Origin: a virus
Length of the DNA: 64,000 bases
Strand: one strand, 5' to 3'
IMG/VR virus record: IMGVR_UViG_3300037141_000243
Location: 1-64,000 of that record
Below the pieces are notes generated by a model. That model saw only the letters and a list, made by a program, of their open reading frames with translations. It did not search any database and was not told the DNA's origin. Positions 3,785 through 51,644 of this stretch are shown in pieces. The position numbers were made by a program, and so were the translations under genes. Position 1 is the stretch's first letter; each line of letters opens with the position of its first letter.

Positions 3785-4318
3785 TCAGAACGCATTGGTG
3801 ACGGTTGCCCCGGCTGCAATCGGGCGATAACGCATGTAGTGCTTCCATGTGCCGGTCGTGGAGCCTACGGCAATGGTCAGGTTGATCGCACCCGCTTGGA
3901 CGACAATAGATCCAGGAACCGCCGTGATGCCCACGCCAGTCGCTTCCAGTAGTAACGCCGTATTTAGCGCCGTGCCCTGAAGAACGAGCATCTCGCCAAT
4001 TGCAGCAGAGGCGAGGGACGCGGACGCGGCAGAGATAGTGCCGGCAAGAGCGCCCAAGGTTGACAGCGTCGCCCATTGCGCGGTTGAAGCGGTTGAATCA
4101 TTCGCCGTCTGGCAAATTGAAACGAGGGAAAGAATCTGGATCGGGCCACCAATCACGCTGAAGACGTGGAGGGCGTTCGACATGACAGCGGCCCCCGTGA
4201 CTACTAGAGCGTCGCCGCCGCTACCAATGACGTCGCCGTTGGCATCGGTTTGAATGAGGACGGCGGCTTTGGTCGGGCTGGTACCGTAGGCAAGGGCGGG
4301 AATCGGGTTCTGAGACAT
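3785..4318 (-). CDS. Virion-associated protein of unknown function, Ala/Ser-rich
   Basis: 177 residues from the ATG at 4318, which has AGGAG about nine bases upstream; an in-frame start 14 codons further up lacks a ribosome site. Low-complexity Ala/Ser/Thr/Gly-rich protein that looks beta-structured: SLVSICQTANDST, an IGEMLVLQGTAL segment, and a C-terminal TGTWKHYMRYRPI. It sits directly before the sheath. It could be a tail-completion or decoration protein, but I do not recognise the family. Confidence 0.6.
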   Translation of the reverse strand: MSQNPIPALAYGTSPTKAAVLIQTDANGDVIGSGGDALVVTGAAVMSNALHVFSVIGGPIQILSLVSICQTANDSTASTAQWATLSTLGALAGTISAASASLASAAIGEMLVLQGTALNTALLLEATGVGITAVPGSIVVQAGAINLTIAVGSTTGTWKHYMRYRPIAAGATVTNAF

Positions 4319-4331
4319 TAACTTATTCTCC

Positions 4332-5408
4332 TTAGATGTTGTAGGACAGGTTGGAACCAAAGATGTAGGATGGGATTGCCCGTTTGATCAGTTGCCGGGC
4401 AATGTTGCGGGCTTGCGACTGATTATATGTTACATCAAACAGAATTGACTTCTTTTGGGCGATGGCGAGCAGCTCTGTCTGTTGTCGTTTTTCGTCGCGC
4501 ATAACCGGCATGTTGGTAATACCCAGCGTGCCGTAGTTGGTGCTGAACTGGTTGACAAAATCCTGGAAGCCCAACGCGGTATTGTTATTCAGACCGTAAA
4601 AAGTGATCCGGACCTTGTCTCGGCAAAGCTGGCTGTGCGAATAGGTCGGCCCCAGCGTAGGAAAATCCTGCAACGCTTCGGTATCCTCTTCCCCAATATG
4701 GACCGTGCCAAAGGGTGGGCGCAGGTTTTGCTGGGCCAAAAAGGACGGGAACAGCGGGACATCATTACCAAACGCATCCCAAGGCATTTGATCCCAATTG
4801 TTCATTGACAACCAGATCGGCAGGCTATTGGAGACAATCTGTTGGCTGGTATTGATCTGTTCTACTTCGTCGATGATCTGGGTTTCCATGTCGGCGTAGA
4901 TCGCCTGACCGGAATAATGGTACAGATTGGCCTGCTCGTAGTACGGGGCGCGCTGTGAGAAAGCAAAGCGGATGCCTTCCAGCGGCGGGTCCAAAGGCTC
5001 TGCAATATACAGGACATTGGGGCCAATCTGATTGAAGGCGTCGATCTTGCTCTCGGCGGTAAACACCACCTGATTGATCGAAAAGTTCTCAGCGGACTCT
5101 TGCTGCATCATCGTGGCGTAATGCAGCGAGCCTTGGATCGTGATCGACAGGGTCGAGGGATCGGGGGGCGGTAAATACGGTGCGTTGTAATTGGCCTCGT
5201 TATAGAGCGAGGTATTGTAAAGGGCTGAATGGGTCGATGCGACCAGACCGGCTTTGACCCAAAAGACGAAACCATCCAAAGGCAGGACCAGGCGCACGTA
5301 TTTGTTGAACGTGATCGTCTGGTCAAGCGAAAGGGTGTCCAGCCCCAGCTTGATGGCGGCTTCTAGCGGTGTCCCTTGTGTGCCGGACGCCTCGGCAACG
5401 CCAACCAT
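4332..5408 (-). CDS. Hypothetical structural protein upstream of the sheath
   Basis: 358 residues, start ATG 5408 with AAAGGA upstream. No transmembrane segment or catalytic motif. Many aromatic and Asn/Gln residues (SALYNTSLYNEANYNAPYL, YHYSGQAIYADMETQI) suggest an extended virion protein. It lies between neck-type proteins and the sheath, where T4-like and Mu-like phages encode tail terminator or neck components, but the length is larger than a usual terminator. Family not recognised. Confidence 0.6.
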   Translation of the reverse strand: MVGVAEASGTQGTPLEAAIKLGLDTLSLDQTITFNKYVRLVLPLDGFVFWVKAGLVASTHSALYNTSLYNEANYNAPYLPPPDPSTLSITIQGSLHYATMMQQESAENFSINQVVFTAESKIDAFNQIGPNVLYIAEPLDPPLEGIRFAFSQRAPYYEQANLYHYSGQAIYADMETQIIDEVEQINTSQQIVSNSLPIWLSMNNWDQMPWDAFGNDVPLFPSFLAQQNLRPPFGTVHIGEEDTEALQDFPTLGPTYSHSQLCRDKVRITFYGLNNNTALGFQDFVNQFSTNYGTLGITNMPVMRDEKRQQTELLAIAQKKSILFDVTYNQSQARNIARQLIKRAIPSYIFGSNLSYNI

Positions 5409-7303: not shown

Positions 7304-7909
7304 TTAAGTAGTAAGTAGTTCTAGTGCTTTTCTTAGTTTGGCAGCACGTACCCATTCAGATATTCGTTTACCTTGTGCTTTACGTTTTGCTGGTGTCCAA
7401 AAAGCCTTTTGAGCCGTGACAATTTCTGCACGTCGTTTCTTATCGGCCCACATCTCTAAAGATGCTTTTGAACGAATTGCATCTGCTTTGCGTCGAACTT
7501 CGGGGTCTTTCGATCCACCAACAGCGTATTGGTTACCCAACCCGGCTTGACTAATTTTCTTTCTGGCAGATTTGGAAAAAATCATATTTGTAGGGCCTTC
7601 CCCACCATCCGTTCGATTAACAAGCGGGCCTGTTCCTAAATCTTCCCGACCTATTACTTTAATCAAAGCCATTTCCATTTCAACGGCTTCTTTACGCGTT
7701 AAGCCAGTTCTAATTACACAAACAGGTAGCTTACCTTTTGTTCCACGAATAATGCGGGCCAGATGAAGATTAGTGTGTTGACCTCGTAAAGCTCTTTTAA
7801 TGTGCTTAAAAGGTCGGTCTTTATTTCCTTGTCCAACATAACAAGGAATTCCAGTCAAACGAAAATAAATGTAAACACAGAACGCGCACCACGGTATTCT
7901 TTTTGCCAC
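7304..7909 (-). CDS. GIY-YIG homing endonuclease 1
   Basis: 201 residues. The N-terminal GIY-YIG nuclease domain shows VYIYFR followed by GIPCYVGQG (the GIY and YIG strands), then Arg/Lys helices and TRKEAVEMEMALIKVIG with the conserved glutamates, ending GTGPLVNRTDGGEG. The rest is a basic DNA-binding tail with modular repeats (SARKKISQAG, RKAQGKRISEWV). The GTG at 7909 is preferred over a TTG at 7927 because GGGAGG lies five bases before it; the TTG lies inside the leader hairpin. It sits directly after the major capsid gene and shares its 5' leader with the GIY-YIG gene at 49.1-50.0 kb. Such genes spread by cutting alleles that lack them. Confidence 0.88.
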   Translation of the reverse strand: MAKRIPWCAFCVYIYFRLTGIPCYVGQGNKDRPFKHIKRALRGQHTNLHLARIIRGTKGKLPVCVIRTGLTRKEAVEMEMALIKVIGREDLGTGPLVNRTDGGEGPTNMIFSKSARKKISQAGLGNQYAVGGSKDPEVRRKADAIRSKASLEMWADKKRRAEIVTAQKAFWTPAKRKAQGKRISEWVRAAKLRKALELLTT

Positions 7910-7911
7910 AA

Positions 7912-7989
7912 GAACCTCCCGGTTCAATCCAAAGTGAAGACACGGCAGGTAGGTGGATAGCCTACTCTTCGGGGTATCCCCCTAGCCGG
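7912..7989 (-). ncRNA. Conserved structured leader of GIY-YIG gene 1
   Basis: Between the capsid stop and the nuclease start, the minus strand holds in order: CGGCTAGG, a GGGG/CCCC hairpin, CCCCGAA, a GTAGG/CCTAC hairpin whose loop contains ATCCA, TGCCG (pairs with the first CGGC), TGGAT (can pair with the ATCCA loop, a pseudoknot), then GAACC-GGGA-GGTTC, a hairpin with a GNRA loop that contains the ribosome binding site. The same blocks in the same order occur at 49997-50077 before another GIY-YIG gene, with compensating changes in the stems. Function unknown; translational control is the simplest idea. Confidence 0.6.
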
Positions 7990-8000
7990 ATCTAACTACG

Positions 8001-9023
8001 TTATTCGTAGGTCGCTGATAACACAGTTACAGCTTCCGGGCGGACGGCCCAGCCGGAAGAGATGCGCCATTCGGACAACACATCGATTGCGCCGCCGGGG
8101 ATGGGCGTCGGAATCTCACGCGGGGCTGCCATGTCATTGTACTGAAGGGTGCAGGCGTCGAAGCCCGGCTCCAGCTTGGCGAACTCGTTGGTGTTGATCT
8201 TGCCGCCATCCGGCTTCTGGACTTCTGGCATGGTGATGATAATGGCATCCGCACCGCCGCTGCCAGCACCGATCAGGGTGTCGTCATAGCACCACAGAAT
8301 TTCATCATCATTGGTATCCAGAACTTCCTTGACCACACCGGCGGTCGAGGTCGTGCCGGCACCCACGCGTTGGAATTGCGTAAGCTGGACGATGTTGGGG
8401 TATTCCATCTGGCCCAGATCACGCTGCGGTCCCAGGATGGTAAACTTGCGGCCAATACCCAGGGTATTGGTACGGGTCTTGATCGCAAGAATCTGGCTGA
8501 GAATGTAGAAAGCCAGTTGACCGTTGTCGTAGGTGACGATGGTATCGTTGTTAAACGCATCCGGGGGCAGGCTGACGGTGGTCGCTCCAGATGCGTGGAG
8601 CAAGCCCTCGCCGTTGGCCGGATTAAAGCCAGAGAGAAGGCCCGTGCGGGCAAGCTGGAAATGACCCTGCCGCATACCGAGGCGCTGGGCCTCGACAATG
8701 CTGACGCCCCATCGGGCGTTGGCAGCGGTATCGTGATGATCGTATTCCGCGCGCACCCGGAGCAGATAGGTGGGCGTGGATACCAGCGAGATGGTGGTGC
8801 TGATCGACGGCAGGTTGTTGTAGGCGGACTGGCCGGCAGCAACCTTGTTGCGGACGTCCATGCGTTTTACATAAGCATACAGATCGCCGTCCGACAGGCG
8901 GGTCTGCATTTCCCCGCCATAGAGAGTATCGAACGCACCGCTGGCCTGGGTATAGGGCAGGATGATCCGGGGCTCCATATAGTGGGGGCTAACGGTAACG
9001 AGGGCTGGTGCAAGACTTGACAT
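8001..9023 (-). CDS. Major capsid protein
   Basis: 340 residues, ATG 9023 with GGAGA upstream. Pattern typical of the DUF2184-type major capsid family (HK97 fold): an N-terminal arm, then RVRAEYDHHDTAANARWGVS, EAQRLGMRQGHFQLARTGLLSG, GLLHASGAT, GPQRDLGQMEYPN, and a beta-rich C-terminus. It is flanked by the decoration protein upstream and neck genes downstream. Family membership is recalled from sequence pattern, not from a search. Confidence 0.82.
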   Translation of the reverse strand: MSSLAPALVTVSPHYMEPRIILPYTQASGAFDTLYGGEMQTRLSDGDLYAYVKRMDVRNKVAAGQSAYNNLPSISTTISLVSTPTYLLRVRAEYDHHDTAANARWGVSIVEAQRLGMRQGHFQLARTGLLSGFNPANGEGLLHASGATTVSLPPDAFNNDTIVTYDNGQLAFYILSQILAIKTRTNTLGIGRKFTILGPQRDLGQMEYPNIVQLTQFQRVGAGTTSTAGVVKEVLDTNDDEILWCYDDTLIGAGSGGADAIIITMPEVQKPDGGKINTNEFAKLEPGFDACTLQYNDMAAPREIPTPIPGGAIDVLSEWRISSGWAVRPEAVTVLSATYE

Positions 9024-36342: not shown

Positions 36343-38340
36343 CTACCCACCCAGCACTAAAGTACCGCAGGCCAGCACGAGAGGGCTGATCCCATCGCCT
36401 TGCGCGAAAGGCTGCGCGAAGGCTTCCAGCACGGCGAACAGGCTACCTTTGGGCTCGCCCTTGGTGCCCATAATGACCGAAGTCACATAGCCGCGTACAA
36501 CGTGGCGAATTGATTCCGGATTGACATCCTTTTCCTTCAGACCAACCAGGATATCCCTGATTTCACCCCAGGGCCGTCCCGCTACCAAGGCACGGGCCAA
36601 ATCGACCGCCTCGGTGCTTTCCTCGGCGCTACGGAGCAGATCACGGGCTTCCTCGATGGTCTTGGCCCCGGCACACGCACCCAGCGCAACAAGGCCAGCA
36701 CGCGGGCTGCCGTGCGCCTCCTTGGCGCAGAGCGATACGATTTGACGGCCCGCACCCGTCTGAAGGATTTTCTCGGCAACGGCTACGCTTTCTAACAGGT
36801 CGATGATCAGGTTGGTTGGTACATCTTTTAAGTTGTAAGCCGTGCAGCGGGTTTTGATATTGGTGGGGATTTTCCCCAGCTCGGTCGTGCAGAGGCACCA
36901 CCACGTATCTGGCGGCGGCTCTTCCAATGATTTAAGCAGGGACGCCCATGCCGGCGCTCCGAGGCGATGGCAATTATGCACCAATACATTATTTACAAAA
37001 TATGACGGATGCTTTTCAATCTCTAAATCGTAGAACGTGACATAGCCATCACACAACGCTTGATCTCGGTTACAACTTGCGGGCAAAATTTCAATACCTG
37101 CTCGTTGGTAACTCGTAACACTGTCCACCCTAAAGATTCCAGTTTCTTTTCCTTTTTGCGATCCTTCGCTTGATTTCGTTCCGAATTGTGCCCTTTCCCA
37201 TCTACTTCTATTGCTAATTTTATATGCGGAAAAGCCAAATCCACTTTGTAATTTGTAGGGTATCCGGGTAACCTTTTCCCCAAAGAAACAGCAAACTCTA
37301 CCGCACAGTTCAAACGCTTTAGTAACATAACCTGGGGCTTCGTTAGTTTTCCATTCCCACCCCGATTTTCCGGAAGAATTAAGTTCGTCCCATTTTTTAT
37401 TCTGGTAGCTATAATTTTGTCGATTACATCCCGTCGTTTTGTGGGGTTGTTTTTCTGCATCCGTTTGGAAGACAAACGGTCCAGCTTTTTGTAATACTCC
37501 GGGGAACGAATACGAGATTCCAAAACCCCACGAGAAACAGCTTCTTTCCAATAATCTGGACGCGGCCCAGTTCTTTTTGATGCCCCCAACTCGTCTCCAC
37601 AAACTTTCGAACAAGTCTGAATTCCCAAACCATTTGAACGCACATAAAAAGGCTCCCCACAAACCGGGCACTGCCTTCGCAGGCAAGTGGTGCAAGTTAT
37701 TTTGTTTGGCGCTCTGGCTTGAAAACTTATCCCACATGAGGAGCAAGTTTTGGTCCAACGTCTTTTTGCTCTGTAATTCATCACCAATTTGTAGATCGCA
37801 CGCGGCAACCCACCCCCTAGCTGTAAAAAACAAATGCTCTTTAGAGCAACAAATAGAGGATGATCCTATGCTTATTTGCATAACCCTTGCAAGAGGAATC
37901 TTGGACCGAAAAACAGAACTAACCCGCGACAACCCAAGCCCGCACACAATTTCTTGCCCCACACCAATCTGCTCAATTGGCAAAAACCCATTACCAACAT
38001 CAATCAACGTTCCTGGAGCAAAACATTCATCTACAATAATCACGCGGGCCTGGCTGCGACCGTGCATTTTGTAGCCCAAGGTTTCGGTAATCCGCCTCAT
38101 GTCATCGATGCTGGTAAAAGTCGCAGCGTCGATCTCCTGAATGGCGTGGTCCTTGGCCCCCACTTCGGTAGCAAGGATGCGGGCCAACGTGGTCTTGCCC
38201 GTACCCGATGGACCGGAGAACAAAAAGGTGTGGTTGCTCTTGGATTTGAGGACACGCCGCAAGGATGTAACCACGGCGTCCTGACCGATCACATCTTCAA
38301 AGGTCTTGGGACGGTATTTAAGGTAGAGGGATTCGGTCAT
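36343..38340 (-). CDS. Clamp loader ATPase interrupted by an intein
   Basis: 665 residues as read. Exteins: residues 1-105 with the AAA+ N-terminus (LYLKYRPKTFEDVIGQ, Walker A GPSGTGKTT at 43-51, VIIVDE Walker B) and 457-665 (CHRLGAPAWASLLKSLEEPP, KIPTNIKTRC, C-terminal helical domain). Joined, they make a 314-residue DnaX/RFC-like loader with the DECH box restored. The intein is inserted inside the DECH box, exactly between E105 and C457. The loader opens and loads the sliding clamp (candidate at 43337-44356). Confidence 0.88.
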   Translation of the reverse strand: MTESLYLKYRPKTFEDVIGQDAVVTSLRRVLKSKSNHTFLFSGPSGTGKTTLARILATEVGAKDHAIQEIDAATFTSIDDMRRITETLGYKMHGRSQARVIIVDECFAPGTLIDVGNGFLPIEQIGVGQEIVCGLGLSRVSSVFRSKIPLARVMQISIGSSSICCSKEHLFFTARGWVAACDLQIGDELQSKKTLDQNLLLMWDKFSSQSAKQNNLHHLPAKAVPGLWGAFLCAFKWFGNSDLFESLWRRVGGIKKNWAASRLLERSCFSWGFGISYSFPGVLQKAGPFVFQTDAEKQPHKTTGCNRQNYSYQNKKWDELNSSGKSGWEWKTNEAPGYVTKAFELCGRVCCFFGEKVTRIPYKLQSGFGFSAYKISNRSRWERAQFGTKSSEGSQKGKETGIFRVDSVTSYQRAGIEILPASCNRDQALCDGYVTFYDLEIEKHPSYFVNNVLVHNCHRLGAPAWASLLKSLEEPPPDTWWCLCTTELGKIPTNIKTRCTAYNLKDVPTNLIIDLLESVAVAEKILQTGAGRQIVSLCAKEAHGSPRAGLVALGACAGAKTIEEARDLLRSAEESTEAVDLARALVAGRPWGEIRDILVGLKEKDVNPESIRHVVRGYVTSVIMGTKGEPKGSLFAVLEAFAQPFAQGDGISPLVLACGTLVLGG
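36973..38025 (-). mobile_element. Intein in clamp loader Walker B, 351 residues
   Basis: Residues 106-456 of the clamp-loader frame. Block A: Cys1 in CFAPGTLI. Block B: CSKEHLFFT with its conserved His, then GWVAACDLQIGDEL. Blocks F/G: FYDLEIEKHPSYFVNNVLVHN, with His-Asn at the end and Cys as the +1 extein residue. These are the residues for class 1 protein splicing. The frame is open throughout, yet the middle 215-250 residues look like no endonuclease and instead lie over a different, out-of-frame nuclease gene. Confidence 0.85.
37023..37781 (-). CDS. Vsr/DUF559-type (EDxHD-like) homing endonuclease nested in intein
   Basis: 252 residues read in the +1 frame relative to the intein; start ATG 37781 (TTG at 37808 also in frame). 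N-terminus has three Cys clusters (CSSCG, CTTCLRRQCPVCG, CSKVCG), probably zinc fingers for DNA binding. The C-terminus YKVDLAFPHIKLAIEVDGKG, then ERNQAKDRKKEKKLESLGWTVLRV, is a Vsr/DUF559-like nuclease fold, as in the I-Bth0305I family found with introns and fractured inteins. The whole gene lies inside the intein coding sequence (36973-38025). Confidence 0.75.
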   Translation of the reverse strand: MNYRAKRRWTKTCSSCGISFQARAPNKITCTTCLRRQCPVCGEPFYVRSNGLGIQTCSKVCGDELGASKRTGPRPDYWKEAVSRGVLESRIRSPEYYKKLDRLSSKRMQKNNPTKRRDVIDKIIATRIKNGTNLILPENRGGNGKLTKPQVMLLKRLNCAVEFAVSLGKRLPGYPTNYKVDLAFPHIKLAIEVDGKGHNSERNQAKDRKKEKKLESLGWTVLRVTNEQVLKFCPQVVTEIKRCVMAMSRSTI

Positions 38341-39700: not shown

Positions 39701-42265
39701 TTATTTTTTCCACGTGTTAGATGCGTACTTACCAATCTCGTCCATATCACAGAGATTAGGACCGATGGACATTTCCACCACCAGCGGCACATTCAGGAAC
39801 GGGTAGGTCTTAGTCAGCAAGGTATCAATCTTTTCCTCGGCATAATCATCAAAACCCTTAACTGGAAAGATACTGGTAAGATCATCATGGATATTACAAA
39901 TGGGCTGGAAATACCAGTCTTCCTTTTCCGAAAGTGCGTTCATTCCGTCGATCACAATTTCACTCGCTAGATTTTGGATAGGGGCATTGATAAGCTGGTT
40001 CGGTGAGATTGGGGCGCGGCGTCGTATTCCCATTGCATTCTCAACATACCCCTGCTCCTTGAAGTCAGCGATGATGCGTTCCTGCCATTCCTTGACCCCT
40101 GAAAAGGTCTTCCAAAATTCCTTGTAAAGCCTACCCAGAGATCCCTCAGGCAAACCCACTTGTCTTTCGGCGGTCGATTGCTGCGCGCCAAAGAACAGGG
40201 CGAAAACCCACCCACCCTTAACCGTCTGGCGAAAACCCTTCATGACGCCTTTGTCTTTTATGTATTTCTTACCCCCAACAACAACAGGAAATTCGTAAGC
40301 AATCTGCTCGGCCCAATCCATGTGCACGTCATAATCTTCCCAGAGCATTTTAGCGTAAACTTTGTCCTGTGACTCCATCGCTATACAACGACCCTCAATC
40401 TGCCCGTAATCCACGGAGCAAAGCAGATGGCCCTCAGGGGCGGCGATCTGACGACGGATTTCTTTTCCATCATCAGTTCTCTTGGGCAGATTTTGTGAAT
40501 TTGGGTCCTCTGAACTCGACCGACCTGTAACCGTACTGAATCCATTCAATATCGGATGCAGCTTTCCATCAGGGTAAACGTATTTGTGACCCTTGGGCCA
40601 TACATAAGTTGACGCCAGCTTGGACGGCGCGCGCCAGTCCAACACCTTTTTGGCAATCGGGGCGTCGATCTTTTCCAGCACGGATTTGGTTACGGAATAG
40701 CTGGCCTCGCCGCCGTTGTAGCCTTCGCTCTTGCCAGCATCCGACCCCACAATATCGCGGAACATCTTGACACAGTCGGTATCCGATCCGGGCTTAAAGT
40801 CCTTTTTGTATTTCTTACGGAAGGCTGCCACATCCGGATCGGTCGCGATGGCCTTTGTCGCCTTGGCAATGGCCGTGCTCAATTTGTCATCGAGGCGGTC
40901 GGCCTGCTCAAAGTCGACCGGCATCCCCTTGATTTGTGTTAGGACAAGCGTAGGAATACGACGAATGCGGCGCTGGTATAGTTTAGTCAGTCCATCCAGC
41001 TCCAATTCCTCGGCCTGGTTCCAAAACAGCTCGAGACAGTATTTGGCGTCCACCGCGTTGTAGGGTAGGATCGCTTCCAGCGGTTCGCTTTCCATGTTTT
41101 TAGTATCGACATTAGACAGCGTCTTGATGTTAATACCAAAGCGGTTGAGTGTGATGAAACCCAACCCAAGGCAACTCGTATCCTTTGATGCCTGCTCTTG
41201 ATCCGGCTTACCACCCACCCTTTCGTCCAGGGTATAGGCTTGGACCATCGAGTCACCCCATTGGGTACCGCGCAACAATTCCTTACCAAATTTGACCGCC
41301 GTCCATTCCATCTCGAATGCCAAATTGTGGGCTATCTTGCGGACAGGGGCTTTCAGGTACGCGAGGAAAGCCTGCCGGATCATTTCCTTGGCCGGCTTAC
41401 TCCATTTGGCTTCTGGGTGGTCGTAGGGGAAGGCAATCGCCTTACCTTTGATTGCAATCCCAATGGACAGGATTTTGGTTTCGGGGCGGTAAGGGCGCAA
41501 ATGACTGGTTTCATAGTCAAGCCCGGATTCAGGCTCGCTGGCGGCCTTTTCCAGAAAGCGGACAATGTCCCCTGCCGCCCGTGGATCGCACCAGTCGACG
41601 CTTGTGAGGCCCGTGAACGCCTTTTCCCGGCTATGGAAAGGGGGCGGGGGCAGATCGTTGATCTCAGCAAAGGCCCGGCGCAGGTCAAGGCGGAAAACAT
41701 GCTCCTCCTTGGATTCCCCGCTGCGGCGGGCTGAGCGGGCCACAAAGGTGGGGTCCAGCATGGGGAAATACCAGCAGACGTGGTTACCTATCTTGACGGG
41801 TATTTTCCTGCCACGCCATTTGACAATACCATTCTGTTGGAGCGCCCAATGTAGGGGCACATTCCCCATACCGAAGATCGCTAGGGGCTGAGCAACAATG
41901 ATGTCTTTTTCAACACGCGGTCTGCAACACTCTCTCTCGATAGGTTCAGGATCACGTCCGGCTGGCGTTCTACAATTGATGACATTGTTAAAGCGTATTC
42001 GGTCGCGCCACTTCTTAGGAATCTGTTTGAGCAAAAGCTGGCCCGATGTGCCGGCAAAATGCTCGCCCTGTTTATCATCCTCGGCGGTAGGGGCTTCCCC
42101 CAATATGTAGATGTCAGGCTGCTTATCGCCCGACGCTTTCATCTTGGGGTGGTCAAGGTCGGCTGTATTCAGCGGGCATCCACGGCAACCCAACCTGCGA
42201 TACAAATCAACAGACCCAGAATCACCGCTGGCTTTTGCTAACGTCTGTGCCCCAAAAAACCCCAA
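39701..42265 (-). CDS. DNA polymerase I with N-terminal uracil-DNA glycosylase domain
   Basis: 854 residues. Residues about 25-200 match family 4 UDG: CRGCPLN, GEAPTAEDDKQGEHFAG, NVINCRTPAGRDPEP and ECCRP, giving the four-Cys iron-sulphur pattern. Then a 3'-5' exonuclease (DYETSHL, IAHNLAFEMEW, YNAVDAKYCLEL) and a family A polymerase: motif A SVDYGQIEGR, motif B KGFRQTVKGGWVFALFFG, motif C NIHDDL. The start is TTG 42265, with AGGGG nine bases upstream lying in the 3' end of the HNH gene. A UDG-Pol I fusion is known from SPO1-like phages. Confidence 0.9.
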   Translation of the reverse strand: MGFFGAQTLAKASGDSGSVDLYRRLGCRGCPLNTADLDHPKMKASGDKQPDIYILGEAPTAEDDKQGEHFAGTSGQLLLKQIPKKWRDRIRFNNVINCRTPAGRDPEPIERECCRPRVEKDIIVAQPLAIFGMGNVPLHWALQQNGIVKWRGRKIPVKIGNHVCWYFPMLDPTFVARSARRSGESKEEHVFRLDLRRAFAEINDLPPPPFHSREKAFTGLTSVDWCDPRAAGDIVRFLEKAASEPESGLDYETSHLRPYRPETKILSIGIAIKGKAIAFPYDHPEAKWSKPAKEMIRQAFLAYLKAPVRKIAHNLAFEMEWTAVKFGKELLRGTQWGDSMVQAYTLDERVGGKPDQEQASKDTSCLGLGFITLNRFGINIKTLSNVDTKNMESEPLEAILPYNAVDAKYCLELFWNQAEELELDGLTKLYQRRIRRIPTLVLTQIKGMPVDFEQADRLDDKLSTAIAKATKAIATDPDVAAFRKKYKKDFKPGSDTDCVKMFRDIVGSDAGKSEGYNGGEASYSVTKSVLEKIDAPIAKKVLDWRAPSKLASTYVWPKGHKYVYPDGKLHPILNGFSTVTGRSSSEDPNSQNLPKRTDDGKEIRRQIAAPEGHLLCSVDYGQIEGRCIAMESQDKVYAKMLWEDYDVHMDWAEQIAYEFPVVVGGKKYIKDKGVMKGFRQTVKGGWVFALFFGAQQSTAERQVGLPEGSLGRLYKEFWKTFSGVKEWQERIIADFKEQGYVENAMGIRRRAPISPNQLINAPIQNLASEIVIDGMNALSEKEDWYFQPICNIHDDLTSIFPVKGFDDYAEEKIDTLLTKTYPFLNVPLVVEMSIGPNLCDMDEIGKYASNTWKK

Positions 42266-49131: not shown

Positions 49132-49995
49132 CTATTTGGGCTTAGGGGGTTTACCATGCTTTTCCCGCCATTTGACCCAGCCAGCACTCATGGCAGCACA
49201 AGTCTTTTTACGAAAATCTAAGTCATTCTCCCAGCGGGCAGAATACCTAATACCGGCGGCTTTTAATTTTGCCACTACATCTGACCGCCCCATAGCCTGT
49301 TTAACAGCGACCTTTCTCCGTTCCTTCACACCAGGTTTTGCATTAGCCGCTTTAAGAATTTTACCTAAATTAGCACGCCACTTTGGATCGGCCCTTGTCG
49401 CTTTGTGTTTAGCTTTCACTTCCGGACGACTATACGCTTCCTTTGCTTTGGTGCTTTGTCCTTTACGCCAAACTACATCCGCGTGGGCTACCCTACATCT
49501 TTCCTTCACATCAGGCCGAAGATGAGCCGCTTTAAGAATTTTATTTCTTCTCTCTAAGAAACCCGGTTTCCGTAAAGTTGCCAAAGCAGCTTCTCTTTTC
49601 TTTGCTTTTACCTCCGGTTTTGCCAACGTCTCTTTAAGTACCATCGCCCTTCTCTTTCTGGCATCATCAGAAAGGGCTACTAAACCATCACCCCCGCACG
49701 TCATATTTGCTAAAGTACCAGTACCAAGATCAAGTCTACCATATCTAGTAATTAATCTTATTTCTAAAGCAACCGCCTCTGATTTAGTCAGACCCCCGGC
49801 AAAAACTTCATACAAAAGATTTTCAGCACCGTATTTACGAATGATGTTTCTAAAAATATTCTTTCGCTTTGCGGGTCGCTTTGCTGCTCTCAAATGTTCT
49901 TCTTTACGCTGTTTTCTTTTGCTTACCCCAATATAACACAGCACGCCATTAGGACGGCGGAATTGGTAAACGTAATATATGCCTAAACGTTTCAT
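49132..49995 (-). CDS. GIY-YIG homing endonuclease 3 with repeated DNA-binding modules
   Basis: 287 residues from ATG 49995, five bases after GGGAGG in the leader hairpin. GIY-YIG domain: YYVYQFRRPNGVLCYIGVSKR, RNIIRKYG, LEIRLITRYGRLDLGTGTL, ending MTCGGDGLVAL. The C-terminal half has about six copies of a short basic unit around xPxVKxRxxxA (for example PEVKAKKREAAL, PDVKERCRVAH, PGVKERRKVAV). It is placed immediately after the SNF2 helicase gene and shares its leader with GIY-YIG gene 1. Confidence 0.87.
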   Translation of the reverse strand: MKRLGIYYVYQFRRPNGVLCYIGVSKRKQRKEEHLRAAKRPAKRKNIFRNIIRKYGAENLLYEVFAGGLTKSEAVALEIRLITRYGRLDLGTGTLANMTCGGDGLVALSDDARKRRAMVLKETLAKPEVKAKKREAALATLRKPGFLERRNKILKAAHLRPDVKERCRVAHADVVWRKGQSTKAKEAYSRPEVKAKHKATRADPKWRANLGKILKAANAKPGVKERRKVAVKQAMGRSDVVAKLKAAGIRYSARWENDLDFRKKTCAAMSAGWVKWREKHGKPPKPK

Positions 49996-49996
49996 C

Positions 49997-50077
49997 AAAA
50001 CCTCCCGGTTCGATCTATCCTGGGAAAAAGCGCGGCAGCCAGTTGGATGGACTGGTTTTCGGGGATCAACCTAGCCG
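49997..50077 (-). ncRNA. Conserved structured leader of GIY-YIG gene 3
   Basis: Same ordered blocks as at 7912-7989: CGGCTAGG, GAT, CCCCGAA, a CCAGT/ACTGG hairpin with CCATCCA loop, CTGCCG closing on CGGC, GGAT able to pair with the ATCC loop, then AACC-GGGA-GGTT holding the ribosome site. The hairpin stem differs in sequence from that at 7.9 kb but is paired in both, which supports a conserved RNA structure. It begins ten bases after the helicase stop codon. Confidence 0.6.
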
Positions 50078-50087
50078 CAAACAGACC

Positions 50088-51644
50088 TTATATTACTTTG
50101 CCGGGATCACGCAAGAGCGCCCTGAAAACATCCTCACCCTGCTTGTGGAAATCGAGAATGCGTTGGTCAACAGTACCCTTACATACCAAATCTATCAGAA
50201 AACCAGGAAGCGTTTGTCCTTCCCTAAACGTCCTACGCTCAGATTGTTCTCTATCAACCACACCCACGGGACTCTCGTAATATATACAATAGTTAGCGAC
50301 CTGAAGGTTAAGGGCCATGCCGCCAACCCGCCAGTTAGTCACCAGAACCGTCATTCGCGGATCATCATCAAATTGCTTTTGCAGGGCGCGACTATCTTTG
50401 GTCCCGCCATATAACCACCCAGCTTTAATCTTGGCCTTTTCCAGCGCCTTGCAAATTTCCCTACCGCTGTGAACAAATTCGTGAAATACAACAGCCTTCC
50501 GGTTAACGGGCAATTCCATCAGTAATTCAACCAAGCGGTCCAATTTTGGATTTGAAGGAAATACCAACTCAGCCTTTTCCCCCGTCTCATCGTTTTTCCA
50601 TCCTAAGAAACCCCCACTAATTTGTCTCATGCGAAGAAACATATTTCGTATTTGTATACTGTCGCCTCTTGCAACGCGGAGAGCAAACAGGGCCTTGTCA
50701 TAATAAGCCCGCGCGTCTTCTGGCAACGATACCTTTTCTATAATACGGGTAACTGATGGGAGATTTTGACATTCGGCAGAGGAATAGGTAATTGATCTAT
50801 TCTCTAAAATTTCCCTCAACACATTCTCTTTATCTTTACAAAAAACATATTCATAACCGCCCCAGTAATTCTTCTTCTCTGTAAAGAACGCGGCGCGGAA
50901 GAGCCCTAGCGTGTCCCCGAGGGTTTCACCCCGGTCAACTAAATACATTTGCGACCACAACATCGTTGGGTCACGCCCAAACGGTCTGCCGGCCAGGGCG
51001 TAGCGATACTTAGCCTTCTTGGATATGGCGCGGCAAATGCGAAAAGTCAGCGACCCCATATTCCCAAGTTTTGTCGATTCATCGTAAACCACAGCCGTTA
51101 TATTGGCAGCAAAGCGATCAACCGCTTTCTGATTCAGGGCCAGCTTGATCTTGCCCTTTTTGTTGACGGTCTTCTTGGACAGCAACGAGGCAATCCCTGG
51201 GTATGTCAGAACGAGGAATCCGAAATCTAATTCAGCAAAGGTAAGCCATTTTTGGTCGCTGGAGGAATTGCCAATCACATCGTAAGGAAGAGTCATCTTC
51301 CATTTCTTGATCTGATCTTCCCAATTGTAGACAGCAGATTCAGACGGCACCAGAATCAGGATCGTGGGGTTGGCTTTGGTCTTGCTGAAAAGGTGGTGCA
51401 TCACCTCCAGCATAATCCGCGTCTTGCCTAATCCCATATCAAGCCACAGGGCGAGCTGAGGGTAGGCCAGGCACAACAGGATGCAGGCTTTTTGATGTTT
51501 GCGTAAAGGCTTGGATCGATCCGCCGGCCTGAACCCAATTGCCTTTAATTCATCGTCAAGGGTCTGTTCGGATAATTGCTTTACCCAGGCCAACGATGTA
51601 CGGGGTTGGCGGAAAAATTCCTTGACGGCATCAGGGTGGAGCAT
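50088..51644 (-). CDS. SNF2/UvsW-type helicase
   Basis: 518 residues. Walker A DMGLGKT at 69-75, TILILVPSESAV (motif Ia), VYDESTKLG (DE box variant), YALAGRP (motif III-like), then the second RecA domain AVVFHEFVHSG, VLVTNWRVGGMALNL and ending near RRTFREGQ (variant of the SNF2 arginine motif). Superfamily 2 translocase, probably acting on branched recombination intermediates like T4 UvsW. Start ATG 51644. Confidence 0.8.
   Translation of the reverse strand: MLHPDAVKEFFRQPRTSLAWVKQLSEQTLDDELKAIGFRPADRSKPLRKHQKACILLCLAYPQLALWLDMGLGKTRIMLEVMHHLFSKTKANPTILILVPSESAVYNWEDQIKKWKMTLPYDVIGNSSSDQKWLTFAELDFGFLVLTYPGIASLLSKKTVNKKGKIKLALNQKAVDRFAANITAVVYDESTKLGNMGSLTFRICRAISKKAKYRYALAGRPFGRDPTMLWSQMYLVDRGETLGDTLGLFRAAFFTEKKNYWGGYEYVFCKDKENVLREILENRSITYSSAECQNLPSVTRIIEKVSLPEDARAYYDKALFALRVARGDSIQIRNMFLRMRQISGGFLGWKNDETGEKAELVFPSNPKLDRLVELLMELPVNRKAVVFHEFVHSGREICKALEKAKIKAGWLYGGTKDSRALQKQFDDDPRMTVLVTNWRVGGMALNLQVANYCIYYESPVGVVDREQSERRTFREGQTLPGFLIDLVCKGTVDQRILDFHKQGEDVFRALLRDPGKVI

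What the first reader, a model, noticed from the sequence alone, without database searches (positions are those of the whole stretch)
7912..7989. Conserved pseudoknot-like RNA leader shared by two distant GIY-YIG genes
The leaders at 7912-7989 and 49997-50077 share ordered blocks (CGGCTAGG, CCCCGAA, an ATCCA-loop hairpin, TGCCG, GGAT, AACC-GGGA-GGTT). The variable hairpin stems differ in sequence but both pair (GTAGG/CCTAC and CCAGT/ACTGG), and the ATCC loop can pair with the downstream GGAT in both. Outer CGGC/GCCG also pairs. The genes share little outside the nuclease core and sit after unrelated host genes, so the leader travels with the endonuclease. I do not recognise it as a known ribozyme or intron piece.
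Basis: partly seen in the sequence, partly recalled or inferred. Interest (0 to 1): 0.86.

Follow-up and report, generated by a model that had tools for sequence, protein, structure and literature searches.

The report
Phage RNA switch ahead of endonucleases
Two selfish DNA-cutting genes in this virus each carry the same folded RNA in front of them, a distant relative of a catalogued RNA family of unknown function, and comparison with many other phages suggests that one of its loops pairs with the ribosome-binding region and so controls how much endonuclease is made.

Summary
Both leaders (minus strand) match Rfam RF02996 'int-alpA RNA', a family whose function I found nowhere in print, just below its cut-off (34.9 and 30.8 vs 35.8 bits). 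A two-gap pattern found at least 119 similar stretches in viral contigs. In 84 non-redundant leaders the fold is a stem P1 holding hairpins P2 and P3; P1 and P3 covary. The P3 loop is complementary to two tracts of its own mRNA: a1, about 10-15 nt downstream, and a2, about 23-27 nt downstream, in the loop of a hairpin that carries the ribosome-binding site. That is the logic of the P1 C4 and P4 CI antisense RNAs, but C4 does not match and one loop serves both targets. At least 24 of 75 downstream genes are HNH, GIY-YIG or endonuclease VII-like; others are replication and tail genes. In relatives of the capsid locus leader and endonuclease are missing together. Best reading: a portable translational-control module, often mobile with homing endonucleases. 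Not shown: function, expression, cis or trans action. In the window's own leaders a2 is short (GGGA).

The parts
7943..7988 (-). Leader 1 core: P1 stem (CGGC 7988-7985 with GCCG 7946-7943) holding P2 and P3
   Evidence: RF02996 match 7925-7992, 34.9 bits; coordinates; R1 44.7 bits, but R1 was built with it
7971..7982 (-). Leader 1 P2 hairpin
7949..7965 (-). Leader 1 P3 hairpin, stem GTAGG/CCTAC
   Evidence: covariation of P3 in relatives
7954..7960 (-). Leader 1 P3 loop CTATCCA (proposed pairing loop a')
7925..7933 (-). Tract a1 (TTTGGATTG), complementary to the P3 loop
   Evidence: TGGAT at +11; duplex -4.5 kcal/mol
7912..7925 (-). Hairpin GAACC-GGGA-GGTTC that carries the ribosome-binding site; loop GGGA = short a2
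   Evidence: duplex with P3 loop -3.3 kcal/mol
7304..7909 (-). GIY-YIG endonuclease gene 1, GTG start at 7909 (GTG as start is my reading)
   Evidence: PF22945 E 1.8e-5, below its cut-off
8001..9023 (-). Upstream gene: major capsid protein
   Evidence: PHROG 6671 E 3.6e-136, unnamed; homologue annotated major capsid protein in PdC23
50032..50078 (-). Leader 2 core: P1 (GCGGC/GCCGC) holding P2 and P3
   Evidence: RF02996 match 50018-50081, 30.8 bits; R1 48.7 bits, but R1 was built with it
50039..50055 (-). Leader 2 P3 hairpin CCAGT/ACTGG
50044..50050 (-). Leader 2 P3 loop CCATCCA
50015..50023 (-). Tract a1 (CCAGGATAG) of leader 2
   Evidence: GGAT at +12; duplex -4.5 kcal/mol
49999..50010 (-). 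Hairpin AACC-GGGA-GGTT with the ribosome-binding site, short a2
   Evidence: duplex with P3 loop -4.9 kcal/mol
49132..49995 (-). GIY-YIG endonuclease gene 2, ATG start at 49995
   Evidence: PF01541 E 8.8e-5, 23.2 bits over the cut-off of 22.6
50088..51644 (-). Upstream gene: SNF2-type helicase
   Evidence: PF00176 E 2.1e-14

Best explanation
Each leader is a self-contained translational-control RNA that works like the antisense RNAs C4 of phage P1 and CI of phage P4. The P1-P2-P3 domain displays the P3 loop. That loop base-pairs with tract a1 and with tract a2, the loop of the hairpin that carries the ribosome-binding site; pairing with a2 would block ribosome entry, and a1 is a second target or decoy. 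The RNA is thus a repressor or switch of the endonuclease, which lies in a read-through operon. Shown by sequence: structure, covariation, double complementarity, position at the ribosome-binding site, shared presence and absence with the endonuclease at one locus. Inferred: that pairing represses translation, whether it acts within one mRNA or as a freed RNA on other copies, and that the purpose is a limited pulse of endonuclease.
For: RF02996 matches both leaders; canonical members show the same plan: E. coli islands L145 and L146 (64.2, 64.9 bits; sequences) and the GIY-YIG leader of Rhizobium phage RHph_X2_25 (40.9 bits, over the cut-off). In 84 non-redundant leaders (the window's two included) the P3 loop pairs with its own a1 zone at mean score 14.2 against 8.34 +/- 0.31 for swapped partners (maximum of 500: 9.2), and with its own a2 zone at 12.36 against 9.86 +/- 0.26 (maximum 10.7). 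4-nt matches peak at +10 to +12 (36, 44, 41 of 80 against 3-4) and +23 to +26 (19, 21, 19, 18 of 80 against 3-4). Covariation score 0.318 against 0.092 +/- 0.009 shuffled and at most 0.116 slid; all 5 P3 pairs change on both sides. Empty capsid site in relatives.
Against: The swap test ignores relatedness. 11 of 84 leaders fall below score 10 in one zone. In the window a2 is only GGGA, -3.3 and -4.9 kcal/mol. Loops differ within 9 of 12 genomes with two or more leaders, so a shared trans regulon is not general. The fixed 10-12 nt from P1 to a1 would also suit a purely intramolecular pseudoknot. Folding energies are ordinary. No expression data. The window leaders were inside model R1, so their R1 scores are not independent.
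Confidence: 0.6

Rival explanations
1. A purely cis-acting switch: loop-a1 pseudoknot and loop-a2 pairing are mutually exclusive states of one mRNA, chosen by a ligand or protein that binds the conserved junction (TAG, CGAAAAG, CTG).
For: Tight spacing P1 to a1; near-invariant unpaired junction letters across phages; private loop sequence per leader in most multi-leader genomes; pyrimidine-rich linker with few G.
Against: No ligand or protein is suggested by the diverse downstream genes; C4 and CI precedents are antisense RNAs.
Confidence: 0.27
2. Simple sequestration of the ribosome-binding site by the downstream hairpin, as for T4 I-TevI or mobE, with the upstream fold only a terminator-like or stabilising structure.
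For: Ribosome-binding-site hairpin of at least 4 pairs in 76 of 80 leaders, mean score 11.6 against 8.8 with shuffled flanks; T4 precedent (PMC2988022, passages read); T4+ tract within 14 nt of P1 in 22 of 82 against 2 and 5 of 82 further on.
Against: Does not explain why the P3 loop matches both tracts in each leader's own mRNA.
Confidence: 0.08
3. A self-cleaving ribozyme or a remnant of a group I intron.
For: Pseudoknot-like fold and conserved junction letters.
Against: No ribozyme or intron family reaches E 5 on either leader region or E 1 in the window; precise fit to translation start instead.
Confidence: 0.02
4. A DNA-level element (insertion or cleavage site of the endonuclease) with no RNA role.
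For: Moves with the gene at the capsid site.
Against: Compensatory changes that keep RNA pairs; found before non-endonuclease genes.
Confidence: 0.03

Closest known systems
int-alpA RNA, Rfam RF02996
   Same: Consensus P1-P2-P3 fold and junction letters; E. coli members have the same loop-a1-a2 plan
   Different: The window leaders score below its gathering cut-off; they precede GIY-YIG genes after capsid and helicase genes, not an integrase-AlpA context; I found no stated function
C4 antisense RNA of P1/P7, RF01695
   Same: Stem with two hairpins upstream of the regulated gene; a loop complementary to the ribosome-binding-site region (P1 annotation, sequence; PMC5320573 passages read)
   Different: No sequence match; C4 uses two elements a' and b' for two sites, here one loop for both; an E. 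coli island carries both RNAs side by side as separate families
CI RNA of satellite phage P4
   Same: One RNA with two complementary target tracts (PMC4825925 passage read)
   Different: There the targets flank CI on both sides and control transcription termination; R1 finds nothing in P4
Ribosome-binding-site hairpins of T4 I-TevI, segB and Aeh1 mobE
   Same: RNA structure over the ribosome-binding site of a homing endonuclease (PMC2988022 passages read)
   Different: No conserved upstream domain and no matched loop is described in the passages read

Membership tests
int-alpA RNA RF02996 | Score at or above the gathering cut-off of 35.8 bits | tested here: not met
   34.9 and 30.8 bits; but 11 of 18 sampled pattern loci (14 of 18 at E<=1) and the RHph_X2_25 GIY-YIG leader (40.9) are over it
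int-alpA RNA RF02996 | Consensus P1, P2, P3 fold with CUAG and CGAA junction letters | tested here: met
   full-length matches 1-71 of 71
int-alpA RNA RF02996 | Position between an integrase and an alpA gene (recalled from the name) | tested here: not met
   capsid or helicase gene upstream, GIY-YIG gene downstream
C4 antisense RNA RF01695 | Match to the covariance model | tested here: not met
   no match at E<=10 in the window's record; none in 15 further records (where no control rang either); true C4 is found in L145
C4 antisense RNA RF01695 | Processing by RNase P and action in trans | not testable with these tools
   needs RNA work
P4 CI-type antisense RNA | One loop complementary to two tracts of the same transcript | tested here: inconclusive
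   clear in relatives; in the window a1 is clear, a2 short
Self-cleaving ribozyme or group I intron | Match to a known model | tested here: not met

The most novel reading that the evidence does not exclude
A large, unrecognised class of phage RNA regulators: cassettes of about 90 nt that travel with homing endonucleases and other early, replication and tail genes, each with its own private loop code that repeats at a1 and at the ribosome-binding site, so that each gene limits its own translation independently of its neighbours; the orphan family int-alpA would be its canonical branch and C4/CI its better-known analogues.
Probability: 0.45. Interest if true: 0.82.

Novelty: new variant of a known kind. 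Interest (0 to 1): 0.68.

Why it matters
It gives a testable function to an orphan Rfam family, extends C4/CI-like RNA control from a few phage immunity loci to many phage genes, and offers a concrete answer to how free-standing homing endonucleases, which insert into other genes' operons, can bring their own regulation with them. The loop code, if real, would be a natural set of orthogonal translation switches.

Tried and rejected
Ribozyme and intron readings: no Rfam support. C4 membership: rejected on the model, kept as an analogy. 'Leader belongs to GIY-YIG genes': rejected in that form, because 18 of 18 GIY-YIG loci (L005-L022) have no R1 match and most of the 80 proteins scanned in A2 are not GIY-YIG (PHROG 314 matches 7 of 80). 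A weaker link stands: with the loop restricted to ATCCA, PHROG 314 matches 14 of 31 downstream proteins (the window's two are among the 31 scanned). A single shared regulon per genome: not general; of 12 records with two or more R1 matches among 50 the loops agree in 3 (G020, G045, and G026 which is a near copy of the window) and differ in 9 by my reading; several second matches are weak (22.7-26.1 bits). Folding energy as evidence: not significant. Promoters: none found next to either leader. Second empty site: Edwardsiella phage ZHS has its helicase gene without leader or endonuclease, but the next genes are not homologous, so it is only consistent.

Rows dropped: 120 pattern elements, 103 kept by the P3 and P1 filter, 84 after removal of near-duplicates; L052 and L055 look like false positives and were left out with the window's two (80 left); L052, L055, L071, L037 and L112 were left out of alignment A3 (79 rows). 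The P3 filter asks for a hairpin, so P3 covariation in A3 leans towards it; a1 and a2 were not used in any filter of that set.

Full report
What is there. On the minus strand of this window, two leaders lie directly between an upstream gene and a GIY-YIG gene. Leader 1 (7988-7912) follows the stop of a gene at 8001-9023 and precedes the GTG at 7909; leader 2 (50078-49999) follows the stop of the helicase gene at 50088 and precedes the ATG at 49995. Only 10-12 bases separate each upstream stop codon from the fold and no promoter-like site was found nearby, so transcription probably reads through from the upstream gene (inference).

Identity. Rfam at its curated thresholds finds nothing in the window. 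With a permissive threshold the only family that matches both leaders, in the right place, strand and over the full model length, is RF02996, int-alpA RNA: 34.9 and 30.8 bits against a cut-off of 35.8, E 5.0e-7 and 5.7e-6 when only this family is searched in the record. The window is part of a 72,849-base virus record with a contractile tail, a family A DNA polymerase and replicative helicase; I saw no integrase among the proteins I scanned, which are not all.

Relatives. Of 18 such loci given to Rfam, 14 match RF02996 at E<=1 and 11 exceed its cut-off. Named relatives that were not used to build my model R1 also match: Rhizobium phage RHph_X2_25 (57.1 bits), phage D6E (45.0), Acinetobacter phage Ab105-2phi (39.0) and Edwardsiella phage GF-2 (38.1). 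Rfam puts the first and last of these, and two E. coli island loci, over its cut-off.

Anatomy. 120 elements were found in the loci held at the time, 103 passed a filter for a P3 hairpin and P1, and 84 remained after near-duplicates were removed; two of these are the window's. On an alignment of 79, P1 and P3 show compensatory changes: covariation score 0.318, shuffled 0.092 +/- 0.009, no more than 0.116 when slid; all five P3 pairs have changes on both sides. P2 and the inner P1 pairs hardly vary in this set because the search pattern fixed them.

Two targets of one loop. The P3 loop is complementary to its own downstream sequence at two places. Against swapped partners the first zone scores 14.2 (swapped 8.34 +/- 0.31, maximum of 500 trials 9.2) and the second 12.36 (9.86 +/- 0.26, maximum 10.7); 73 of 84 leaders score 10 or more in both. 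Exact 4-nt matches make two peaks, at +10 to +15 and +23 to +27 after P1. The second lies in the loop of another hairpin, of at least 4 pairs in 76 of 80 leaders, whose stem differs in sequence from leader to leader (for example AACC/GGTT, ATCGAA/TTCGAT, CAGATT/AATCTG) and which carries the ribosome-binding site some 10 nt before the start codon. The shuffled-flank control for that hairpin is 8.8 against 11.6 observed, a smaller margin than for the loop matches. The E. coli loci that Rfam recognises best show the same plan: L146 has loop GAAGCCTTA, a1 TAAGGC, and a hairpin GCGT-GAAAGGTG-ACGC before the ATG.

The window's two leaders in this light. P3 loops CTATCCA and CCATCCA, a1 TGGAT and GGAT, ribosome-binding-site hairpin AACC-GGGA-GGTT. 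The a2 match is short (UCC with GGA, or CC-UCC with GGGAGG): -3.3 and -4.9 kcal/mol against -4.5 for a1. Among 30 distinct leaders with an ATCCA loop and a GGAT tract, the ribosome-binding-site hairpin loop contains GGAT in 16, and GGGA or similar in most others, the window's included. So the window's leaders fit, but they are not the clearest examples of the second target.

Genes under the leader. In 75 downstream proteins of the non-redundant set I confirmed 11 HNH proteins with Pfam, 7 more HNH and 2 endonuclease VII-like with PHROGs and 4 GIY-YIG with PHROG 314: at least 24 of 75, since only suspects were scanned one by one. The others include DUF1376/primosomal and replication proteins, helicases, tail tube and tail assembly proteins, integrases and Rha. 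With the loop restricted to ATCCA the share of GIY-YIG genes rises: PHROG 314 in 14 of 31 against 7 of 80. In contrast, 18 of 18 GIY-YIG loci found only through similarity to P0002 have no leader.

Does it travel with the endonuclease? The gene before leader 1 has homologues in 14 phage records and the gene after the endonuclease in 12. In the five I fetched (Yersinia YenM_29.18, Klebsiella Chronis, Pantoea PdC23, Escherichia Rac-SA53, Shewanella QDWS) the capsid gene is followed within 29-107 nt by the next gene, with no endonuclease, and no leader anywhere in the record (best 11.4 bits, E 0.52). In the window the leader and the endonuclease fill this gap. This supports one insertion unit at this site. 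For the second site the evidence is only consistent.

How it most likely works. In P1, C4 RNA is encoded just before its target; annotated sites a2 and b2 follow it, b2 close to the start of icd. In P4, CI pairs with seqA and seqC (PMC4825925, passage read). The leaders described here combine these: position as in C4, one loop for two tracts as in CI. I therefore propose translational control by pairing of the P3 loop with the ribosome-binding-site hairpin, with a1 as second target or decoy. Cis or trans is open. The constant distance from P1 to a1, and loops that differ within most multi-leader genomes, favour action on the own transcript; the precedents favour a freed RNA.

Known or new. The family is catalogued; no held paper states a function (one paper lists it; RF02996 is in none; the founding paper, recalled as Weinberg 2017, is not held). 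A search that joined homing endonuclease, antisense RNA, conserved RNA, phage and GIY-YIG gave 8 papers, none of which by title or opening of the abstract concerns such leaders. Translational control of phage homing endonucleases by simpler hairpins is known (PMC2988022, passages). I rate it a new variant of a known kind.

Noticed in passing
window 36343-38340 (-): Clamp-loader ORF of 665 aa holds an intein-like insert: Intein_splicing and Hint_2 matches, sub-threshold, between the two clamp-loader parts.
   Followed up: partly
window 39701-42265 (-): Family A DNA polymerase ORF with an N-terminal uracil-DNA glycosylase-like domain in the same frame.
   Followed up: no
L145 (E. coli NZ_CP027586), 2493-2558 and 4055-4773: One E. 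coli island carries an int-alpA RNA after the integrase and, further on, two C4 RNAs with isrK and c4-a1b1 matches: two RNA systems of the same logic in one element.
   Followed up: partly
L144 1114-1962 and 2496-3310 (RHph_X2_25): Two homing endonuclease genes close to a major capsid gene, as in the window; only the second has the leader.
   Followed up: partly
L226 and L227 (G020), L237 and L238 (G045): Pairs of leaders with the same P3 loop but different P2 or P3 stems within one record.
   Followed up: no
3' end of P1 in C4 of P1 and in the R1 consensus: Both end in CCUGCC before the closing of P1; possibly chance, possibly a common processing signal.
   Followed up: no
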